This document shows, piece after piece, positions 5,411-32,294 of a stretch of DNA of 36,998 bases. The notes under the pieces were generated by a model. It searched no databases and was not told the origin of the DNA. It was given only the letters and a program-made list of their open reading frames with translations. Each line of letters begins with the position of its first letter. Position 1 is the first letter of the stretch. The translations under genes were made by a program, and so were the position numbers. Source of the DNA: Puniceicoccales bacterium Verruco_02 (GTDB taxonomy: Bacteria > Verrucomicrobiota > Verrucomicrobiia > Opitutales > Oceanipulchritudinaceae); assembly GCA_001604585.1 (NCBI GenBank), contig LVBW01000015.1:1-36998 (forward strand), written 5' to 3'.

Positions 5411-5452
5411 CACCTTGCCCGCAGCAGCATTTACGTGGATACTGAGCGCATT

Positions 5453-8400
5453 ATGTGCTACATTTCTTCGCGCTTGTTGTTGCTAGGCATATTGCCGCTC
5501 ATCGGCTCTGGCTCAATGCAGGCTGACACGGAGTCATTACTACCGCTATCGTATGACCTTCGTAATATCGGTGGGCGTTCCTATATAGGAGCAGTGCGCA
5601 ACCAGGGCGATGCAGGAACCTGCTACGCCTTTGCTGCGTGTGCAATGGGCGAGGCAGCTTACAATCTGCATCACAATTTATATGGCAGTAATGTGGTGGA
5701 CTTTTCAGAGTCCTACATATCATGGAGTATGATGCCTCTTTACGATGGCCTGAATGGCGCAGACGGTGGTGATACAAGGGCGGATTTTCTTCAGGCAATG
5801 GTTGACTACGGTGTGTGCAGCGAGAAGGACTTTCCCTATACTGACGTTGATCCTGGCAAGGAGAACTACGTCTATGATGTGCCTACAGTGAAGTTCAACA
5901 ACTGGAACTTCCTGCCCGCCTACGACGTATATACGATGAAGCAGGCAATGCTGAAGTTCGGCGCCATCGGCGTAGGTATTACGCTGGATGAAGACATATA
6001 CGATTACGATGGAGGTGTGTATATCAACAGTGAAACTTCATCCAATAGATTATGCGAGCTTGATGCGTCGTTTAACCATCTGGTTGCTGGCATAGGCTGG
6101 CAGGACGATGATAGTAGCCCCAGCGGAGGATATTGGATATTGCGAAACTCCTGGGACGCAGACTGGGGAGAAGAGGGATACTTCAATATGGACTATGTAT
6201 CAGCAAGAGCGACGCTGCTACCTATGTACATAAACTATGGAGCATGGGTGGGGGATGATTTTTCTATTACGATCGACGCCGACATACATACCGGCTCAAT
6301 GGAGCTGATTTCCTCTGAAGATGTGGCCTTCGGGGTGTATGAATGGGGCGGCAACAATGCCTCAATCACCAATAACGCCAATGTCGTCGTTGAACACTAT
6401 GCGCAGGGGTATGCGGTGGTGCACGGGCTATTCCTCTGGGCTGGCGAGAACGCATTTCTTACGAACAACGGCTCTGTTCTCAGCTCTGTCAAGGTGGACG
6501 GGGGCATCGCGACAGCATATGGTATATGTTTCCAAGGCAAAGACTTGTTGCTTGCATCCGATTCTCTTGTCGATGTCCGTGCCAGTGCGGATGGCCTGCA
6601 TCGTGCCACAGCCTACGGTGTTCGTTATCACGGGTTCAATACCCTTTCAGAGAGTGGAAGCTTTGTGAATAGGGGAAGTATAAATGCTGAATCAACAGGC
6701 GATGATTCCTGGGCTTATGGTGCCTATGTCATGAACGCTGCAAGCGTGCGCAATGAGGGTAATATCTACGTAAAGGCAGGGAATACCGCTGCTGGAATGC
6801 TTCTGTATGAAGTTAAGGATGCAGTCAATACGGCGCGCATAGAAGCCGTGGCATCGACTGACTCAGCATGTGGGGTGTATGCTCAACACACCAGCCTCGT
6901 CAATGAAGGCCACATTTTGGGAGTGGACGACGAGGGGACTGCCAACACCTTCGGGCTGTATGCGATAGATTCCTATATCGTCAACGCAGGCATCTTGGAA
7001 GCTGCTTCGGCATACGGTGAATCCACTGCTGTGTATCTAATAGAAGGGGCTATAGTCAACGACTATGGAGCCTATATAAGCGCAATTGCGATAGATGGAG
7101 ACTCTTACGGCATAGATGCAGAGAAATCATCCATTGTGAACAATGGAACTATTCGTGCTGAGTTCAATGCTTTGTATGATTGCAATCTCTCTGGTGAGGG
7201 TGTGATTCTCGGCAGTCTCACTGTTAATAACACAGTCATCAGTCCCGGCAATTCGCTCGGAATGATGTATATAGACAGGGATTTCCTGAGTGAGGGAGGT
7301 CTCACCATGAATATTGAGTTCGCCAACGGCGCGTGGGACGAGTTGGTCGTTGGTGGCTCGGCAACAATCGAAGGCACGGACAATGTGGTGAATTTGTTTC
7401 ACGAGGGATATCTTGCCTCTGGAGATTTCCTGTTTATAGAGGCTGGCTCAGGTGGGTATGGAGCCATACAGACTGTCAACACGGCTGCTATGTTCGAGGC
7501 CGCTATACAGGCGCGCACCGATGGTTTCGCCCTGTCCATAGATAGGCACAGCTATTCCGACTTCGCTCTTCAGCAGGAATACAAGGCTATGGGCATTGCG
7601 CTCGACGCTGCCCGACCGCTTGCAGAGGGTGAATTTGCCGCAATGCTCAATCGCTTTGATTCCTACCTGCACGCGGAGGCCGTACAGGCAGGAGTAAGCG
7701 ACCTGTTTCCAACGATGAACAGCGACGCTTCGGCGTCTGCGCTCTCGCTCATGCAGGAAGGAAACGTCTTTGCCGCACGCCATGCGAAAGGTCTGCCAGC
7801 CAAGGCTTTGGAAAGCGATCGCCGCTTCGGCACCTGGTTCAGTGTGATGAACGCAGATGCAGATATAGCAGCTTCTGGTGCTTATGCTAAGCTGAAGGCA
7901 GACACAAAGGGCTACGGAGCCGGTGCCGAATACGCTATTACGAATAATTGGACTTTGGGGGTATCCGCAACGAACGCCAAGCAGAAGCTTAGCCATATTG
8001 GCAGTGCCGACAAGGGCAGTGCGAAGGCGGATCAGGTCTTTGTCAGCGCAATGTGGGACCGCAGGCCCGGTGCCGAGGGGCCATACGCCGGAGTTTCGCT
8101 TGGGCTGGCAAGGCTGGACATGGACAGCAGGCGCATCGTGGGCGAGGAAGCCAACATGCTCGAAGGCGCACACAAGGGCAGCGGTCAGAGTCTCTGGATT
8201 GGTGGCGGCTGGGATCTTAACAACAGCTTTTGGACCACGCGGCCATTTGTTGACTTCCAGTATTCGCGCATGAAAGAGGACGCATATACGGAACGCGGTA
8301 ACGGTGGAGCGGCGCTCTTCTTCGATGAGCGCGATAGCGACTCATTATTGGCAGGCGTAGGCATGAGCGTGTCTGCGAACTTTCGCTTCGGCAGCACCGT

Positions 8401-8659
8401 GATTATACCGGAGCTGCGCATCATGCGCCAGAACGAGCTGCTGGCAGAGCCGCCCCCCCTCATGGGCCGCTTCGCACAAGGGCCGCTGTTCCGGGTGGAG
8501 CAGAGGGATATGTCGGGCTCCCGCACGACGATGAACGCCACCGTGCGGACGATAATTGACGAGCGCGTGATGGCGACAATCGACTTCGAGCGTCGCGAAT
8601 ATGAGCTGAAGGACAGCGCAAGCGACTCTTTGAGCGCAAGGCTGCATCTGCGCTTTTAG
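5453..8659 (+). CDS. Papain-like (C1A) cysteine protease-autotransporter
   Basis: This 1068-residue protein is predicted to cross the inner membrane via a signal peptide (hydrophobic LLLLGILPLIGSG core; likely cleavage after SMQA near residue 24) and then use its own C-terminal barrel. The passenger begins with a papain-fold peptidase: catalytic Cys57 in QGDAGTCYAF, His209 in FNHLVAGIGW and Asn232 in LRNSWDADWGEEGYF, the Cys-His-Asn order of family C1A. Residues of about 285-620 hold short beta repeats of the type VN-x-G-x-I-x-A (NEGNIYV, NEGHILG, NNGTIRA), suggesting a beta helix. From about residue 791 an autotransporter barrel starts (FGTWF...), ending in RLHLRF with the expected terminal Phe. 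ATG 5453 was chosen over an in-frame GTG at 5435 because it places the signal sequence at the terminus. Substrate and surface release are unknown. Confidence 0.85.
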   Translation: MCYISSRLLLLGILPLIGSGSMQADTESLLPLSYDLRNIGGRSYIGAVRNQGDAGTCYAFAACAMGEAAYNLHHNLYGSNVVDFSESYISWSMMPLYDGLNGADGGDTRADFLQAMVDYGVCSEKDFPYTDVDPGKENYVYDVPTVKFNNWNFLPAYDVYTMKQAMLKFGAIGVGITLDEDIYDYDGGVYINSETSSNRLCELDASFNHLVAGIGWQDDDSSPSGGYWILRNSWDADWGEEGYFNMDYVSARATLLPMYINYGAWVGDDFSITIDADIHTGSMELISSEDVAFGVYEWGGNNASITNNANVVVEHYAQGYAVVHGLFLWAGENAFLTNNGSVLSSVKVDGGIATAYGICFQGKDLLLASDSLVDVRASADGLHRATAYGVRYHGFNTLSESGSFVNRGSINAESTGDDSWAYGAYVMNAASVRNEGNIYVKAGNTAAGMLLYEVKDAVNTARIEAVASTDSACGVYAQHTSLVNEGHILGVDDEGTANTFGLYAIDSYIVNAGILEAASAYGESTAVYLIEGAIVNDYGAYISAIAIDGDSYGIDAEKSSIVNNGTIRAEFNALYDCNLSGEGVILGSLTVNNTVISPGNSLGMMYIDRDFLSEGGLTMNIEFANGAWDELVVGGSATIEGTDNVVNLFHEGYLASGDFLFIEAGSGGYGAIQTVNTAAMFEAAIQARTDGFALSIDRHSYSDFALQQEYKAMGIALDAARPLAEGEFAAMLNRFDSYLHAEAVQAGVSDLFPTMNSDASASALSLMQEGNVFAARHAKGLPAKALESDRRFGTWFSVMNADADIAASGAYAKLKADTKGYGAGAEYAITNNWTLGVSATNAKQKLSHIGSADKGSAKADQVFVSAMWDRRPGAEGPYAGVSLGLARLDMDSRRIVGEEANMLEGAHKGSGQSLWIGGGWDLNNSFWTTRPFVDFQYSRMKEDAYTERGNGGAALFFDERDSDSLLAGVGMSVSANFRFGSTVIIPELRIMRQNELLAEPPPLMGRFAQGPLFRVEQRDMSGSRTTMNATVRTIIDERVMATIDFERREYELKDSASDSLSARLHLRF

Positions 8660-11667: not shown

Positions 11668-12828
11668 TCAGTGTTTGTTGGATCGGCGCATCAGTAACAG
11701 TGCCAGCCCCATGAACAGTATATTCGGCCCCCATACAAGTAGTTGCGGATATGCCGATGGGGTTCGCTCGGCCCACCCTGCCATGAAGACGAGGAGGAAG
11801 TACGCCATGCTAAGCGCCAGCGCCAGTGCCATGTTGGCATACGTTTCCTGTCTTCCCACCCGTATCCCAAGCGGGATGCCCAGCATGGCAAGCGACAATA
11901 CGCTGTATGCGAAGGCAAAGTTGCGGCTTATATAATACCCTGTCCTTGTATGCTCGACGAGCGCGGCGTTGCCTTCGGCTGCATCGGCTGCCTCTGCCAT
12001 GCGTCTGGCCGCAGTGGCCCGCGCCTCCAGTAGCTGCTCCAGCGACATGTTAGACAGTTTTGCGGGCTGGGCCTCGGCGCGGCGTGCAGGGAGCAGCTTG
12101 TCGAGCGACATTGCAAAGCTAGTATGTGCGAACTCGGCCTCCACGGACACCTGGCCGAGGTCTTCGACGCCAGCCGCACTGCGGAACTGCCCAGTTGCCT
12201 GGTACACACTCAGGATGAGGCTGTTCTTGTCTAGGTCGTAGCTGATGGTGCCCTCCTTTGCGCGCAGAAACTGGCGCAGTTCCCTGTCCGGCCCCAGAAC
12301 CCAGAGCCAGACATTGCCGAGGCGCTCCCCTTCGCGTTCGCCAACGTAAATCACATAGCCGGGGAAATCCCGCACAAAGCGGCCCGGCACGATGAAACGA
12401 AGGGGTTCCTCGTGGACTATGCCCGAGAGCATCTGCCTGTACTGGGTGCGTGCAATGGGGGCGTACACATTGTTGACATACATGCAGAGGCCGCTTCCCA
12501 GCATGGCTATTAGCAGGATGGGCGAACTAATGCGCCAGATGGATACCCCGGCGCTTTTGAGGGCAACTATTTCGTTGCGGGCGGACATTCGCCCAAGAAC
12601 GAGCAGTATAGCCACAAGCAGGCCCATCGGTGCTGCGTAGGACAGGGTGAAGGGCAGCAGAAGGGCCATCATGCGAAATGCCGTGATGGCGTCGAGTTGA
12701 CCGGAGGCGAGCCGTTCGAGCACGTCGCGCATGGCATTGGCCGTCACCAAGACAAAGGTGAATAGAGCCATGCCAGAGAGCGTCGCAGTGGCAACGGACG
12801 AAAATATGTATCTATGCAGAAGCTTCAC
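11668..12828 (-). CDS. lptF: LptF/LptG-family lipopolysaccharide export permease
   Basis: A 386-residue inner-membrane permease of the YjgP/YjgQ (LptF/LptG) family. These proteins form the transmembrane part of the LptB2FG ABC transporter that extracts LPS from the inner membrane. The N-terminus (MKLLHRYIFSSVATATLSG) and the cytoplasmic-loop region GRMSARNEIVALKSAGVS are family hallmarks. There are three membrane segments in the first 110 or so residues, a soluble periplasmic region of about 180 residues, then three C-terminal segments. Choice of F over G is tentative because the paralogue is not in the window. The start is a GTG overlapping the exosortase stop codon (GTGA), indicating translational coupling. 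Confidence 0.87.
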   Translation of the reverse strand: MKLLHRYIFSSVATATLSGMALFTFVLVTANAMRDVLERLASGQLDAITAFRMMALLLPFTLSYAAPMGLLVAILLVLGRMSARNEIVALKSAGVSIWRISSPILLIAMLGSGLCMYVNNVYAPIARTQYRQMLSGIVHEEPLRFIVPGRFVRDFPGYVIYVGEREGERLGNVWLWVLGPDRELRQFLRAKEGTISYDLDKNSLILSVYQATGQFRSAAGVEDLGQVSVEAEFAHTSFAMSLDKLLPARRAEAQPAKLSNMSLEQLLEARATAARRMAEAADAAEGNAALVEHTRTGYYISRNFAFAYSVLSLAMLGIPLGIRVGRQETYANMALALALSMAYFLLVFMAGWAERTPSAYPQLLVWGPNILFMGLALLLMRRSNKH

Positions 12829-13859
12829 GCCTGTCCCTGCTCCTCTTTGGCAGTATTGTCATCGCCCTTGGCCTGCGCATTCTGCGAGGGTTCAGCTTCG
12901 GCAAGCTCTGGCAACTTGAAGTTAAATACCGGCAAGAGGCATAGAAGGAGTATAACCGTAACGCCCAGTACAGCGTAACCTGTTACATCGTGGACAGTGC
13001 CCGCGATAGCCTCAGAGCCGTAAGCGTAAGCCCAGCTTGTAAGGAAGAGACCGCGGGCAAGATTGGTTGCGAAGGCGAGCAGCAGGGCCGTCCCCACCAT
13101 CAGCACCTTCTTCCATAGCTTGTCCAGAAACACGGCGGCCAGGAAAGAGCCAGCAAAGAGGCAGCCGGTGAGCGAGCGGATGCCCGAGCAGGCCTCTTCG
13201 ACGCCGACCTCGCCCTTGGGCAGTATGAGCACATTGCCGCGGCGCTCGATGAGCATCCCCAGCATGTCGAACACACCGAACACCACCGCAGTCACCTTGT
13301 TGAGTAGAAAAACGCTGATCATGCTTTCGACGGCGCTCATCAAGGGGGCGGAGATTATCCAGACAAGGGCCGGGAAGAGCAGCATCCCGAAAAAGGCTAA
13401 CCTGCCTTTGTTGTCGAGGTAGGCACCGTCCGTCCTTCTGTCGGAAAATACCAGTGCAGAGGATAGCACTATGCCTGCAAAGCCGTTCGTCATTAAGAAA
13501 GAGCCGGGCAGGCTGATACCCGTGTAGCCGCGGTAAAGCACGCCGAGAACGAAAACGAGCACCGAGCCTGTAAGGCAGATGCCGCCAATGGCGTCCAGCC
13601 AGCGCTTTGGGCCTTGGGGTGAAGATTCGGGCAGGGGCGAGGGGTTGAAAATGCGCAATATGGCTGGCCAGCGATCGTAGAGGACGAATGCGCAGAATAC
13701 GGGCACGAGGTAGCCGAAGCTGTAATCCTCCTTGATGGACCACCAGTGGGAGAGGTCATACACTATCCACGCGGCCAGCAGAAGGCAGGCTATGGAGGCC
13801 AGTCTCAGTTGAAGGGGCAGTCGCGCAAAGCTCATTGCCTCTGAGAAATAGATTGCCAT
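12825..13859 (-). CDS. xrt: Exosortase
   Basis: A polytopic inner-membrane transpeptidase of the exosortase/archaeosortase family, 344 residues from the chosen ATG at 13859. Exosortases cleave C-terminal sorting signals (PEP-CTERM type) of secreted proteins. The catalytic triad is visible: Cys224 in EEACSGIRS, Arg269 in NLARGLFLT and His290 in GTVHDVTGY. There are about eight hydrophobic segments. The open frame continues upstream through the tRNA-Pro gene, giving a spurious peptide, so the start must be at 13859 or at the second Met at 13835. The stop overlaps the lptF start by four bases. No PEP-CTERM substrate or EPS cluster is seen in this window. Confidence 0.88.
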   Translation of the reverse strand: MAIYFSEAMSFARLPLQLRLASIACLLLAAWIVYDLSHWWSIKEDYSFGYLVPVFCAFVLYDRWPAILRIFNPSPLPESSPQGPKRWLDAIGGICLTGSVLVFVLGVLYRGYTGISLPGSFLMTNGFAGIVLSSALVFSDRRTDGAYLDNKGRLAFFGMLLFPALVWIISAPLMSAVESMISVFLLNKVTAVVFGVFDMLGMLIERRGNVLILPKGEVGVEEACSGIRSLTGCLFAGSFLAAVFLDKLWKKVLMVGTALLLAFATNLARGLFLTSWAYAYGSEAIAGTVHDVTGYAVLGVTVILLLCLLPVFNFKLPELAEAEPSQNAQAKGDDNTAKEEQGQA

Positions 13860-13960
13860 GAGGCGACTATCAAGGCGCGAAACCGGGAATCGTAGCCTCT
13901 CCTCTCTTCGCAGGTTCCCATTGCGCGTTGTGCGTTGGGCTGAAGCGGACCAAATTGAAA

Positions 13961-14038
13961 TGGTCGGGGCGACCGGATTCGAACCGACGACTTCTTGCTC
14001 CCAAAGCAAGCGCTCTAGCCAGACTGAGCTACGCCCCG
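13961..14038 (-). tRNA. tRNA-Pro (anticodon TGG), CCA encoded
   Basis: Read on the minus strand from 14038. The acceptor stem CGGGGCG pairs with CGCCCCG. The D arm is GCTCAGTCTGGCTAGAGC, the anticodon arm CTTGC-TTTGGGA-GCAAG gives anticodon TGG, and the T loop is TTCGAAT. The discriminator A is followed by a genomically encoded CCA (13963-13961). The T stem includes two wobble pairs. It lies about 100 bases upstream of the exosortase gene on the same strand. Confidence 0.96.
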
Positions 14039-14182
14039 ATTTGTTGATGGACAGGGGTTTACGCATACGCATGGCCACCTGTTGCCTCTGAAAGGTCTGG
14101 ACTCTACCGTTTCGGCTAAGGAGTGCAAAGGAAAAATGTCACGCTTGGGAGTGGGCGGGTGCCATTTGGGCAAGAGCGCAAT

Positions 14183-28143: not shown

Positions 28144-28650
28144 ATGGCCGAATCACACAAATGTCAGATTTGCGGCAAGCCCGCCACCGTGCATCTTACT
28201 CAGATTAGCGGGGGCAAGATACACAAGTTCGACCTTTGCGACGAGTGTGCCCACGCCAAGGGCGTGACAGACCCTGACGGCTATTCCGTTAGCGAGGCCA
28301 ATGCTGGGAAGCCCGTGGCGCACAAACACCCCGCTGGCGAGAGCATCGTATGCGGGGTGTGCGGCATTACAGCCAAGGACTTCAAGAAGATGGGCCACTT
28401 TGGCTGCCCGTCCTGTTACGAGTATTTCGGCCCGATAATAACCCCCATGCTGGAGGGTATGCACCGCGACATCGAGCACCGTGGCAGGCAACCGGCACGC
28501 TCTTTGGCACGGCTTGCGCTAAGGAAGAAAATCACCCTTTTGGAAAGTGTGCTCTCCGACGCCGTGGCGGAGGAGCGCTTCGAGGAGGCAGCGCGCCTGC
28601 GCGACGAGCTTGGCGCGTTGAAAGACCAGCTTCAGGATCAGATAAGTTGA
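28144..28650 (+). CDS. mcsA: McsA, zinc-binding activator of protein-arginine kinase
   Basis: McsA stimulates the arginine kinase McsB and, in Bacillus, joins it in stress proteolysis by ClpC. The 168-residue protein has four C-x-x-C pairs in its first half (CQIC, CDEC, CGVC, CPSC), the paired zinc fingers typical of McsA, and a C-terminal UVR domain (LLESVLSDAVAEERFEEAARLRDELGALKD). ATG 28144 opens the frame directly before CQIC. Its last bases overlap the start codon of mcsB. A short perfect palindrome (GCGAA-A-TTCGC, 28078-28088) lies 55 bases upstream and could be an operator. No CtsR-type box was recognised. Confidence 0.94.
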   Translation: MAESHKCQICGKPATVHLTQISGGKIHKFDLCDECAHAKGVTDPDGYSVSEANAGKPVAHKHPAGESIVCGVCGITAKDFKKMGHFGCPSCYEYFGPIITPMLEGMHRDIEHRGRQPARSLARLALRKKITLLESVLSDAVAEERFEEAARLRDELGALKDQLQDQIS

Positions 28651-29750
28651 GCACCGCAAAAACAAGGATAGACGCCATACTGGACGCCGGAGAGCCTATG
28701 CTCTGTGGCGAGGCCGAGGCCTGCCCGGTGGTCATCACTACGCGCATCCGCCTGGCCAGAAACCTTGCCGGGCACCCATTCCCCGGATGGGCCAAGGAAG
28801 CCCAGCGCCGCACTGTGCTCGACCTTTGTCTTGGTGCGCTTGGCGGGGTGCCGCAGCTTCGCGGGGCTGTGACTCTGGCTATGGACACCCTGAGCCAGAC
28901 CGAGAAGCTCATACTTGCCGAGAGCCACCTCATAAGCCGCGAGCTTATGGAGTCGCGCCCCTTTGCGGGCATTGTGACAAGGCCCGAAGCGGGCTGCTCC
29001 ATCATGGTGAACGAGGAGGACCACCTGCGCATTCAGCTAATGCAGGGCGGGTTGGCCCTTGAAGAGCTGTGGGAAAGAGCATCGGAGCTTGATCAGTCGA
29101 TGGAGGGCCGCCTCGACTACGCCTTTTCCCCCCGCCTTGGCTACCTCACGTCCTGCCCAACGAACCTTGGCACAGGCATCCGCGCCTCTGCAATGATGCA
29201 CCTGCCCGGCCTTGTGATGAAAAACCACATAGACCAGCTCGTGCGCATGGTCTCGCAGCTTGGCATTGCCGTGCGCGGACATCTGGGTGAGGGCAGCGCG
29301 GCAAAGGGCAGCATTTTCCAAATTTCCAACCAGCAGACCCTAGGCGAGGACGAGGAGAGCATCATACGCCGCCTGCACAACGTAATCGACGCCATTACTG
29401 AGCAGGAGCTTAACGCCCGCCAGTGCCTCTTGGAGGAGAACGAGCCGCAGCTAATGGACAAAATCGGCCGGGCGAGGGGAGTTCTTCAGAACGGGCATCT
29501 TTTAAGCTCAGATGAGGCAATGGACATTCTTTCGCTGATTCGTCTCGCGGCGGATCTTGGTCTGGTCCCCAGCCAGTGGCGGGGCAGGGCGGACAGGCTC
29601 ATGATAGAGGCCCAGCCGGGGCATATGCAGCACCGGGTGGCGGCTGAGTTGGGCGCTACGCGCAGAGATGTTCTCCGCGCCGTACAGATGAGGGAAGAGT
29701 TTGCACAACTGCCAGCTCTTACCGAAGTTACAGGGGTGGCAAATTTGTAG
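28647..29750 (+). CDS. mcsB: Protein-arginine kinase McsB
   Basis: McsB phosphorylates arginine side chains, which in Firmicutes marks proteins for ClpCP. The 367-residue protein shows the phosphagen-kinase fold: VVITTRIRLARNLAGHPFP at the N-terminus, MVNEEDHLRIQLM, CPTNLGTGIRASAMMHLPGL (active-site Cys region), and a C-terminal RGVLQNGHLLSSDEAMDILSLIR region. The start is TTG 28647, in TTGA overlapping the mcsA stop. No in-frame ATG occurs until after the segment that should precede the first strand, so the TTG with coupling is the best start. ClpC follows after 12 bases. Confidence 0.94.
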   Translation: MSTAKTRIDAILDAGEPMLCGEAEACPVVITTRIRLARNLAGHPFPGWAKEAQRRTVLDLCLGALGGVPQLRGAVTLAMDTLSQTEKLILAESHLISRELMESRPFAGIVTRPEAGCSIMVNEEDHLRIQLMQGGLALEELWERASELDQSMEGRLDYAFSPRLGYLTSCPTNLGTGIRASAMMHLPGLVMKNHIDQLVRMVSQLGIAVRGHLGEGSAAKGSIFQISNQQTLGEDEESIIRRLHNVIDAITEQELNARQCLLEENEPQLMDKIGRARGVLQNGHLLSSDEAMDILSLIRLAADLGLVPSQWRGRADRLMIEAQPGHMQHRVAAELGATRRDVLRAVQMREEFAQLPALTEVTGVANL

Positions 29751-29762
29751 GAGGAAGCAGTC

Positions 29763-32294
29763 ATGTCTATGGAACCGATGAACAATTTCACACCGCGTGC
29801 CCAGCAGGTGCTGGCGCTCGCCCGCAAGGAGGCAGACCGTTTCCACCACAATTACGTTGGAACGGAGCACCTCTTGCTCGGCCTCATTCACCTTGGACAG
29901 GGCGTGGCGGTGAATGTACTTCAGAAGATGGGCCTCAGTCTGGAAACAGTCCGCGCCGCTGTCGAAAAGCAGGTGGGCACCGGGCCGCAGACCAAGCCCG
30001 TGGGCAACATCCCATACACCCCCCGCGTCAAGAAAGTTCTTGCGCTGGCGGGCAAGGAAGCGCGCTCGCTTAACCACAGCTACGTGGGCACCGAGCACAT
30101 ACTGCTCGGCCTGCTCCGCGAGGGCGAGGGCGTGGCTGCCCGCGTGCTGCGCAGTCTGGAAGTGGACATTGAGCGTTGCCGCAACGAGATACGCGCAGAG
30201 TTGGACCCGAACTTCTCCGAGGAACCCGGTGCACAGCCCGACGAGGGCATGTCGCCCGGCCCGATGGGTTCCGGTCCCAGCCCGATGGGCATGGGAGGCC
30301 CAGGCGAAGAGCGAGGCAAGGACATGAAGACGCCCGCCCTGAAGGCTTTCGGGCGCGACCTTACCGAGCTTGCCCGCAATGGCGAAATGGATCCTGTCAT
30401 CGGCCGCAAGGACGAGATACGCCGCGTAGTTCAGATTCTTTGCCGTCGCACCAAAAACAACCCTGTCCTCATCGGCGAGGCCGGCGTTGGCAAGACGGCC
30501 ATTGTCGAGGGCCTGGCGCAGGAGATAGCCAACGGCCTTGTACCCGAGATACTTGCGGACAAAAAGCTCATCACCCTTGACCTCGCCCTCATGGTGGCGG
30601 GGACGAAGTACCGCGGCCAGTTCGAGGAACGCATCAAGGCCGTGATGGACGAGATACGCCGCGCCAAGAACGTCATAGTCTTTATCGACGAGCTGCACAC
30701 AATCGTCGGCGCAGGCGCCGCCGAGGGCGCAATGGATGCCTCGAACATTTTCAAACCCGCCCTTTCGCGAGGAGAGCTTCAGTGCATAGGCGCAACCACC
30801 CTTGCCGAGTACCGCAAGTACATCGAAAAGGACAGCGCCCTGGACCGTCGCTTCCAGAGCGTGATGGTCGAGGCCCCGAGCGTGGAGGACTCGATAAAAA
30901 TTCTTAAAGGCATAGCGCCCAAGTACGAGGAGCATCACAAGGTGGCCTACACGCCTGCCGCGCTGGAGGCAGCCGTTTTCCTGTCGGAACGTTACATTAC
31001 GTCGCGCTTTTTGCCGGACAAGGCAATTGACGTTCTGGACGAATCCGGCTCGCGGGTCCGCATCGAGTCTCTGCGTCGTCCGCCCGAGATTGAGGATCTG
31101 GCGGGCGAGATAGAGCAGATCTGCGCCTCCAAAGAGGAAGCCATTGCACAGCAGCGTTTTGAGGACGCGGCCCGCCTTCGCGACCGCGAGAAGCGCCTGC
31201 GTGCCCAGCGCGAGGAGATGATCGAGGACTGGAAGCGCAGCCGCGAGGAGCAGCGCGTGACAGTCGATGTCGAGGACATGATGCAGGTTGTTTCCGGCTG
31301 GACGGGCATCCCGCTCTTCCGCATGGAGCAGAAGGAGAGCGAAAAACTGCTCAACCTCGAAAAAGAGCTTCAGGACAAGGTCATCGGGCAGAACGAGGCC
31401 ACGGTGGCCATTTCCCGTGCCCTGCGCCGCAGCCGTGCGGACCTGAAAGATCCGCGCCGCCCGATAGGTTCCTTCATGTTCATGGGGCCGACGGGCGTGG
31501 GGAAGACGCACCTTGCAAAGATACTGGCCGAGACGATGTTCGGAGATCAGGACTCGATGGTGGCAATCGACATGAGCGAGTACATGGAGAAATTCTCCGT
31601 GTCGCGGCTCATCGGCTCGCCTCCCGGCTATGTGGGCTACGAGGAGGGCGGCCAGCTTACAGAGGCCGTTCGTCGCAAGCCCTACTGCGTGGTGCTCTTT
31701 GACGAAATAGAAAAGGCGCATCCGGACGTGGTGCAGCTCCTCCTTCAGGTGCTCGAAGACGGCCGCCTAACCGACAGCCTCGGCCGTACGGTGGACTTCC
31801 GCAACACGATCATAATCATGACAAGCAACGTCGGCGCACACATCCTTCAGAAGGGCAATGTGCTCGGCTTTGGCGACTCTGACAACGATGCCAGCTTCGA
31901 GGCGCTCAAGAACCGCATTATGGACGAGGCCAAGAAGGTCTTCAAGCCAGAGTTCCTGAACCGCATTGGCACGATGGTTGTGTTCCGCCAGCTCCTGAAG
32001 CAGGATCTTGTCCGCATCATCGACCTTGAGATTTCCAAACTCGCCAAGCGTCTGCGCGATCGCGACATGCAGCTCAACGTGGACCTACTGGTGAAGGAAT
32101 ACATCATCGAAAAGGGCTACGACGAGAAGTTCGGCGCACGTCCGCTCCGCAGAGCTGTGGAGCAGTATCTCGAGGATCCGCTTGCGGAATCCATCCTGCG
32201 TGGCGAGCTGGAGAAGGGCAGGTCCATCCATGTCAGCATAGAGGACGGCAGGCCCGTCTTCAGGCAGGACCAGCCAGCGTCCAGCATGTCATAA
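29763..32294 (+). CDS. clpC: ATP-dependent Clp protease ATP-binding subunit ClpC
   Basis: An AAA+ unfoldase of 843 residues that feeds proteins to ClpP. Order: two Clp-N repeats (about 8-75 and 85-145, each with a YVGTEHxLLGL motif), a Gly/Pro/Met linker, AAA-1 with Walker [10 protein letters not shown] and Walker B VFIDELHT, a UVR-containing middle domain ([17 protein letters not shown], about 450-500), AAA-2 with GPTGVGKTH and [11 protein letters not shown], and a C-terminal D2-small domain ([21 protein letters not shown]). ATG 29763 is preceded by a strong AGGAGGA (29749-29755). As the third gene of mcsA-mcsB-clpC it is the likely target machine for arginine-phosphorylated substrates (inferred from Firmicutes). 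No clpP lies nearby. Confidence 0.97.

What the first reader, a model, noticed from the sequence alone, without database searches (positions are those of the whole stretch)
5453..8659. Papain-fold protease carried by an autotransporter
A complete C1A triad (Cys57, His209, Asn232) is followed by a beta-repeat region and an autotransporter barrel. Most known autotransporter proteases are serine proteases (SPATE, subtilase); a papain-like passenger is uncommon. No propeptide is evident between the signal sequence and the catalytic domain, although papain-type enzymes usually have one, so activation may differ.
Basis: partly seen in the sequence, partly recalled or inferred. Interest (0 to 1): 0.62.

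Follow-up and report, generated by a model that had tools for sequence, protein, structure and literature searches.

The report
Surface-displayed papain-type autotransporter protease
A little-studied Opitutales bacterium carries a gene for a papain-like protein-cutting enzyme mounted on its own outer-membrane export channel, a combination that is shared by a few relatives but has apparently never been studied in the laboratory.

Summary
ORF 5453-8659 (+, 1068 aa) encodes a signal peptide, a complete papain-family (C1) domain (PF00112, residues 30-247, E 5e-29; Gln51/Cys57/His209/Asn232), a confidently predicted beta-helix (about 271-700), a helical linker and a 12-strand autotransporter barrel (PF03797, E 2e-36; Foldseek hits EstA, AaaA, EspP, NalP). 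The genome is an Opitutales (Verrucomicrobiota) MAG. Five further Verrucomicrobiota MAGs encode the same architecture with invariant active-site residues; the protease is the most conserved part (50% mean identity to the window protein, against 34-38% for barrel and beta-helix). It is a real, selected family, but rare: among 372 Opitutales genomes, full-length relatives occur only in the window's own family. All six proteins start the catalytic domain within a few residues of the signal peptide, whereas the nearest non-autotransporter relatives have about 70-130 extra residues there, so the missing propeptide is real. Most likely it is a surface-tethered cysteine protease that stays unfolded, hence inactive, in the periplasm and folds outside. 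Activity, substrate and release are untested, and the catalytic domain could not be modelled confidently. C1-type autotransporters are mentioned in one census; none was found characterised. New variant of a known kind.

The parts
5453..8659 (+). Papain-type autotransporter, 1068 aa, whole gene (alternative GTG start at 5435)
   Evidence: Open frame; five homologues with the same architecture
5453..5524 (+). Signal peptide, residues 1-24 (MCYISSRLLLLGILPLIGSGSMQA), cleavage site inferred
   Evidence: Read from the sequence; no signal-peptide program was available
5540..6193 (+). Peptidase C1 (papain) catalytic domain, residues 30-247; Gln51, Cys57, His209, Asn232
   Evidence: PF00112 E 5e-29; alignment to dipeptidyl peptidase I; invariant residues
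6263..7552 (+). Beta-helix stalk, about residues 271-700, whose last part (about 591-700, with PGNSxG) resembles an autochaperone region
   Evidence: AlphaFold2, most blocks pLDDT above 80; the autochaperone assignment is by eye only
7553..7822 (+). Alpha-helical linker, residues 701-790
   Evidence: AlphaFold2 helices 701-786
7823..8656 (+). Autotransporter beta-barrel, residues 791-1068, 12 strands, C-terminal Phe
   Evidence: PF03797 E 1.8e-36; AlphaFold2 and Foldseek to EstA, EspP, NalP and BrkA

Best explanation
It is a type Va autotransporter whose passenger carries an N-terminal C1A (papain-family) cysteine peptidase. Inferred working: Sec exports the precursor and signal peptidase cleaves just before the catalytic domain. 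The barrel is inserted by the BAM complex, and the passenger crosses the outer membrane C-terminus first and unfolded. The beta-helix folds outside and pulls the rest through, and the papain domain folds last, at the tip of the stalk. Keeping the catalytic domain unfolded in the periplasm would stand in for the inhibitory prodomain that soluble papains use. The product is a surface-tethered protease acting on extracellular protein, most likely for nutrition or for modifying surfaces nearby. Shown: domain order, conserved catalytic residues, barrel and beta-helix (predicted), absence of a propeptide, a BamA-family (Omp85) gene in the genome. Inferred: activity, surface exposure, folding order, substrate, retention on the cell.
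For: Domain hits. Catalytic residues aligned to solved C1A enzymes and invariant in six proteins. The catalytic domain is the most conserved region, mean 50% identity to the window protein against 36.6% for the beta-helix and 33.8% for the barrel, which argues for selection on catalysis. Beta-helix, linker and 12-strand barrel predicted and matched to solved autotransporters. An Omp85 (BamA-type) protein is encoded in the genome. All six mature proteins begin within a few residues of the catalytic domain, while the non-autotransporter relatives have extensions. There is no Asn-Asn motif in the window protein's linker, so EspP-like self-cleavage is not evident.
Against: No confident model of the catalytic domain, so the fold is not independently confirmed. 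Activity and localisation are untested. The five named relatives are all from metagenome-assembled genomes, and neighbouring genes are not conserved, so no context points to a substrate.
Confidence: 0.8

Rival explanations
1. The catalytic domain is a degenerate or non-proteolytic papain homologue used as a binding or adhesive head on an ordinary beta-helix autotransporter.
For: Inactive papain homologues are known (general knowledge); the canonical first disulfide Cys is replaced (Ala54 in the window) and the domain was not modelled well.
Against: Gln51, Cys57, His209, Asn232 and the NSW motif are invariant in six diverged proteins, and this domain is the most conserved part. The disulfide Cys is also missing in the non-autotransporter relatives L155 and L156.
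Confidence: 0.1
2. The protease head is released after export, by its own activity or by another protease, and works as a soluble secreted enzyme (SPATE- or NalP-like) rather than staying tethered.
For: Many protease autotransporters shed the passenger (established knowledge).
Against: No Asn-Asn motif in the linker of the window protein; only L026 of six has one.
Confidence: 0.3
3. Evolutionary rival: the papain head replaced the subtilisin head of an Opitutales subtilase autotransporter (head swap on a shared barrel).
For: The best barrel matches outside the family are subtilase autotransporters; one clade of papain and S8 barrels is not rejected (p-AU 0.31).
Against: In the barrel tree the papain forms are a clade of their own (99/98) with no supported sister; the S8 barrels form another.
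Confidence: 0.2

Closest known systems
Type Va autotransporter proteases: SPATEs (S6, e.g. EspP, Hbp) and subtilase autotransporters (S8, e.g. NalP, SphB1, fusolisin)
   Same: Signal peptide, N-terminal protease domain, beta-rich stalk, helical linker, 12-strand barrel of the same fold
   Different: Catalytic domain is a C1 cysteine peptidase instead of a serine peptidase; no Asn-Asn cleavage motif seen in the window protein
Secreted C1 peptidases of other Verrucomicrobiota (L149, L152-L156)
   Same: Nearest catalytic domains found outside the autotransporter group, sharing YIGx(V/I)x(D/N)QG and mostly GxCYxF around the active site
   Different: They have about 70-130 residues between signal peptide and catalytic domain, and FG-GAP, fn3, InlB-type and other C-terminal domains instead of a barrel
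Dipeptidyl peptidase I (cathepsin C), best match among solved structures
   Same: C1A family, catalytic residues, Tyr after the active-site Cys
   Different: Only the catalytic domain aligns; no propeptide or exclusion domain here, and a different export route
Cysteine-peptidase autotransporters mentioned in the literature (census PMC5767081; Fusobacterium FN1449 in PMC12940168)
   Same: Same general idea of a cysteine peptidase passenger
   Different: The texts cite an InterPro entry (IPR025660, to my knowledge an active-site signature) and an active-site signature in FN1449, not a complete domain as here; no characterisation was found

Membership tests
Peptidase family C1 (papain) | Full-length match to the family profile above its cut-off | tested here: met
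   PF00112 102 bits against a cut-off of 20.7, positions 1-203 of 220
Peptidase family C1 (papain) | Gln, Cys, His, Asn catalytic residues in order | tested here: met
   Gln51, Cys57, His209, Asn232 aligned to dipeptidyl peptidase I, invariant in six
Peptidase family C1 (papain) | Papain fold | tested here: inconclusive
   Models at pLDDT about 25 and 34.5; Foldseek hits to cathepsins L and S at E 2e-4 have TM-scores of about 0.25
Peptidase family C1 (papain) | Inhibitory N-terminal propeptide (usual, not obligatory) | tested here: not met
   Catalytic domain starts within a few residues of the signal peptide in all six; the segment of non-autotransporter relatives is not found in them
Peptidase family C1 (papain) | Cysteine-dependent proteolysis | not testable with these tools
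   Needs an enzyme assay
Type Va autotransporter | C-terminal 12-strand autotransporter barrel | tested here: met
   PF03797 127 bits; 12 strands; matches EstA, EspP, NalP
Type Va autotransporter | N-terminal signal peptide and beta-helical passenger on the same chain | tested here: met
   Signal peptide read by eye; beta-helix 271-700
Type Va autotransporter | Autochaperone domain before the linker (frequent, not obligatory) | tested here: inconclusive
   PGNSxG-type region at about 598-700 by eye; no profile hit
Type Va autotransporter | Omp85/BamA machinery in the genome | tested here: met
   One Omp85 protein, E 5e-56
SPATE (serine protease autotransporter) | Peptidase S6 domain | tested here: not met
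   No S6 hit; C1 instead

The most novel reading that the evidence does not exclude
This is a lineage of genuine papain-head autotransporters in which export in an unfolded state and folding on the stalk have replaced the inhibitory prodomain, so that a normally zymogen-type enzyme is made without a zymogen.
Probability: 0.4. Interest if true: 0.6.

Novelty: new variant of a known kind. Interest (0 to 1): 0.45.

Why it matters
Protease autotransporters are known almost only with serine-protease heads. A complete C1A head on a classical barrel widens what the pathway carries. It also offers a natural test of whether unfolded export can replace the prodomain that papain-type enzymes normally need for folding and inhibition. 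It adds a protease autotransporter type in Verrucomicrobiota, where autotransporter barrels are common (118 of 273 Opitutales genomes searched) but little studied.

Tried and rejected
Head swap from Opitutales subtilase autotransporters: the barrel tree gives separate clades, and shared ancestry is neither supported nor rejected. Loss of the first disulfide Cys as an adaptation to autotransport: rejected as specific, since some non-autotransporter relatives lack it too. Other C1 proteins with long frames in Opitutales and the wider phylum as further papain autotransporters: none of those fetched has a barrel. Conserved gene neighbourhood or operon: flanking genes differ between the window, L007, L008 and L009. 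Structure of the catalytic domain: both AlphaFold2 jobs failed to give confidence there with six sequences. Plasmids: no record covers 80% of the query, the best matches are passenger-and-barrel only at about 24% identity. Search by family in other phyla was not possible, because search centres must be genomes already held.

Full report
What is there. The frame 5453-8659 on the + strand is open for 1068 codons. Pfam finds two main domains, Peptidase_C1 at residues 30-247 (E 5e-29) and Autotransporter at 795-1045 (E 1.8e-36), both far above their cut-offs. Against solved structures the best matches are dipeptidyl peptidase I and then cathepsins, which place Cys57, His209 and Asn232 on the catalytic residues and Gln51 on the oxyanion-hole glutamine.

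Structure. AlphaFold2 on the six-member alignment A2 gives a beta-helix over about 271-700 with most blocks above pLDDT 80, helices 701-786 and twelve barrel strands 792-1067. Foldseek places the model with AaaA, EstA, EspP, NalP, BrkA and AIDA-I. The N-terminal 266 residues came out at about pLDDT 25, and the catalytic domain alone at 34.5. Foldseek with that poor model still lists only papain-type enzymes among its first eighteen hits, but with TM-scores of about 0.25 or less, so this carries little weight. The papain assignment rests on sequence.

Where it comes from and how common it is. The window is part of a 2.7-Mb, 101-contig genome. Named relatives are Opitutales, Puniceicoccales and unranked Verrucomicrobia MAGs. 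Five further proteins have the same architecture: L023 (50% identity), L024 (37%), L025 (38%), L026 (32%) and L027 (37%). In a search of 372 Opitutales genomes with the whole protein, matches that include the protease part occur only in four genomes of the window's own family (17 family genomes held). C1 domains occur in 64 of the same 372 genomes, but the ones that were fetched, including the long frames, carry no barrel. In the wider phylum 79 of 387 genomes have a C1 domain, and none of the twenty loci fetched from it carries a barrel. Conversely, autotransporter barrels are common: 118 of 273 Opitutales genomes. Other phyla were covered only by a pattern scan of one genome per species (84,980 species), which found five relatives, all Verrucomicrobiota. 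More distant papain autotransporters elsewhere are not excluded.

Selection on the protease. Gln51, Cys57, His209 and Asn232 are invariant in the six proteins. Mean identity to the window protein is 50% in the catalytic domain, 36.6% in the beta-helix, 39.4% in the linker and 33.8% in the barrel. The enzyme, not the carrier, is the best conserved part.

The propeptide question. In all six proteins the signal peptide is followed within a few residues by the start of the mature-enzyme domain (LPxSYDLRN; cleavage sites judged by eye). The nearest catalytic domains outside the group belong to secreted, non-autotransporter proteins of other Verrucomicrobiota. These have about 70-130 residues before the catalytic domain. 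In four of them (L152, L153, L155, L156) the segment is homologous, about 68 residues long, and it matches no autotransporter form even at E 1 with all filters off; L149 and L154 have a different extension, which in L149 includes DUF333. Whether these segments are inhibitory is not known. The comparison shows that the missing extension is a property of the autotransporter group and not of its nearest relatives. SPATEs also lack a propeptide before their catalytic domain (own knowledge), so this is not unusual for an autotransporter.

Origin. In the barrel tree the six form one clade (99/98) without a supported sister, separate from the S8 (subtilase) autotransporters of another Opitutales family. 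Holding papain and S8 barrels together is not rejected (p-AU 0.31). In the catalytic tree five of the six group at 84/53 and the position of L026 is open. A single fusion is the simplest reading.

Mechanism. Established knowledge of type Va secretion suggests Sec export, BAM insertion, C-to-N translocation of an unfolded passenger and folding at the surface. A BamA-family protein is present. On this view the N-terminal papain domain leaves last and folds outside, and the periplasm is protected by the unfolded state rather than by a prodomain. This is inference. There is no Asn-Asn motif in the window's linker, so the head may stay tethered. The substrate is unknown and the neighbourhood gives no hint: upstream a hybrid kinase and a CheA-like protein, downstream a histidine kinase on the other strand, and other genes in the relatives.

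Compared with what is known. A census lists 'cysteine peptidase C1 (IPR025660)' among passenger types (PMC5767081). A Fusobacterium review reports that FN1449 carries a cysteine-peptidase active-site signature and calls a Fusobacterium protein the first cysteine protease autotransporter (PMC12940168). A recent classification of autotransporters does not contain the words cysteine protease or papain (PMC9289746), nor does the 2012 survey contain cysteine or papain (PMC3419190). No characterised papain autotransporter was found. Most subscription papers were not searchable.

Verdict. It is a new variant of a known kind (protease autotransporter with a C1 head). The most interesting part, export replacing the prodomain, is untested.

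Noticed in passing
window 28144-32294 (+): UVR-motif protein, ATP:guanido phosphotransferase domain (McsB-like) and ClpC-like ATPase in a row, resembling the mcsA-mcsB-clpC protein-arginine-phosphorylation set of Firmicutes, here in Verrucomicrobiota.
   Followed up: partly
window 11668-14078 (-): An exosortase gene directly beside an LptF/LptG permease gene.
   Followed up: no
L067, L068, L100, L103, L105, L107, L109, L110, L111: Nine Opitutales autotransporters with a subtilase (S8) head, mostly with a proprotein-convertase P-domain, in one family of the order.
   Followed up: partly
L011:3947-10489 (+) and L112:108-13025 (-): Giant autotransporter frames (2180 and 4305 aa) in the window's genome and a relative, whose barrels group together (100/100), apart from the papain forms.
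   Followed up: no
among the 27 autotransporters of alignment A3 (member not identified): One Opitutales autotransporter has an ice-binding-like domain and one has a cyclophilin domain.
   Followed up: no
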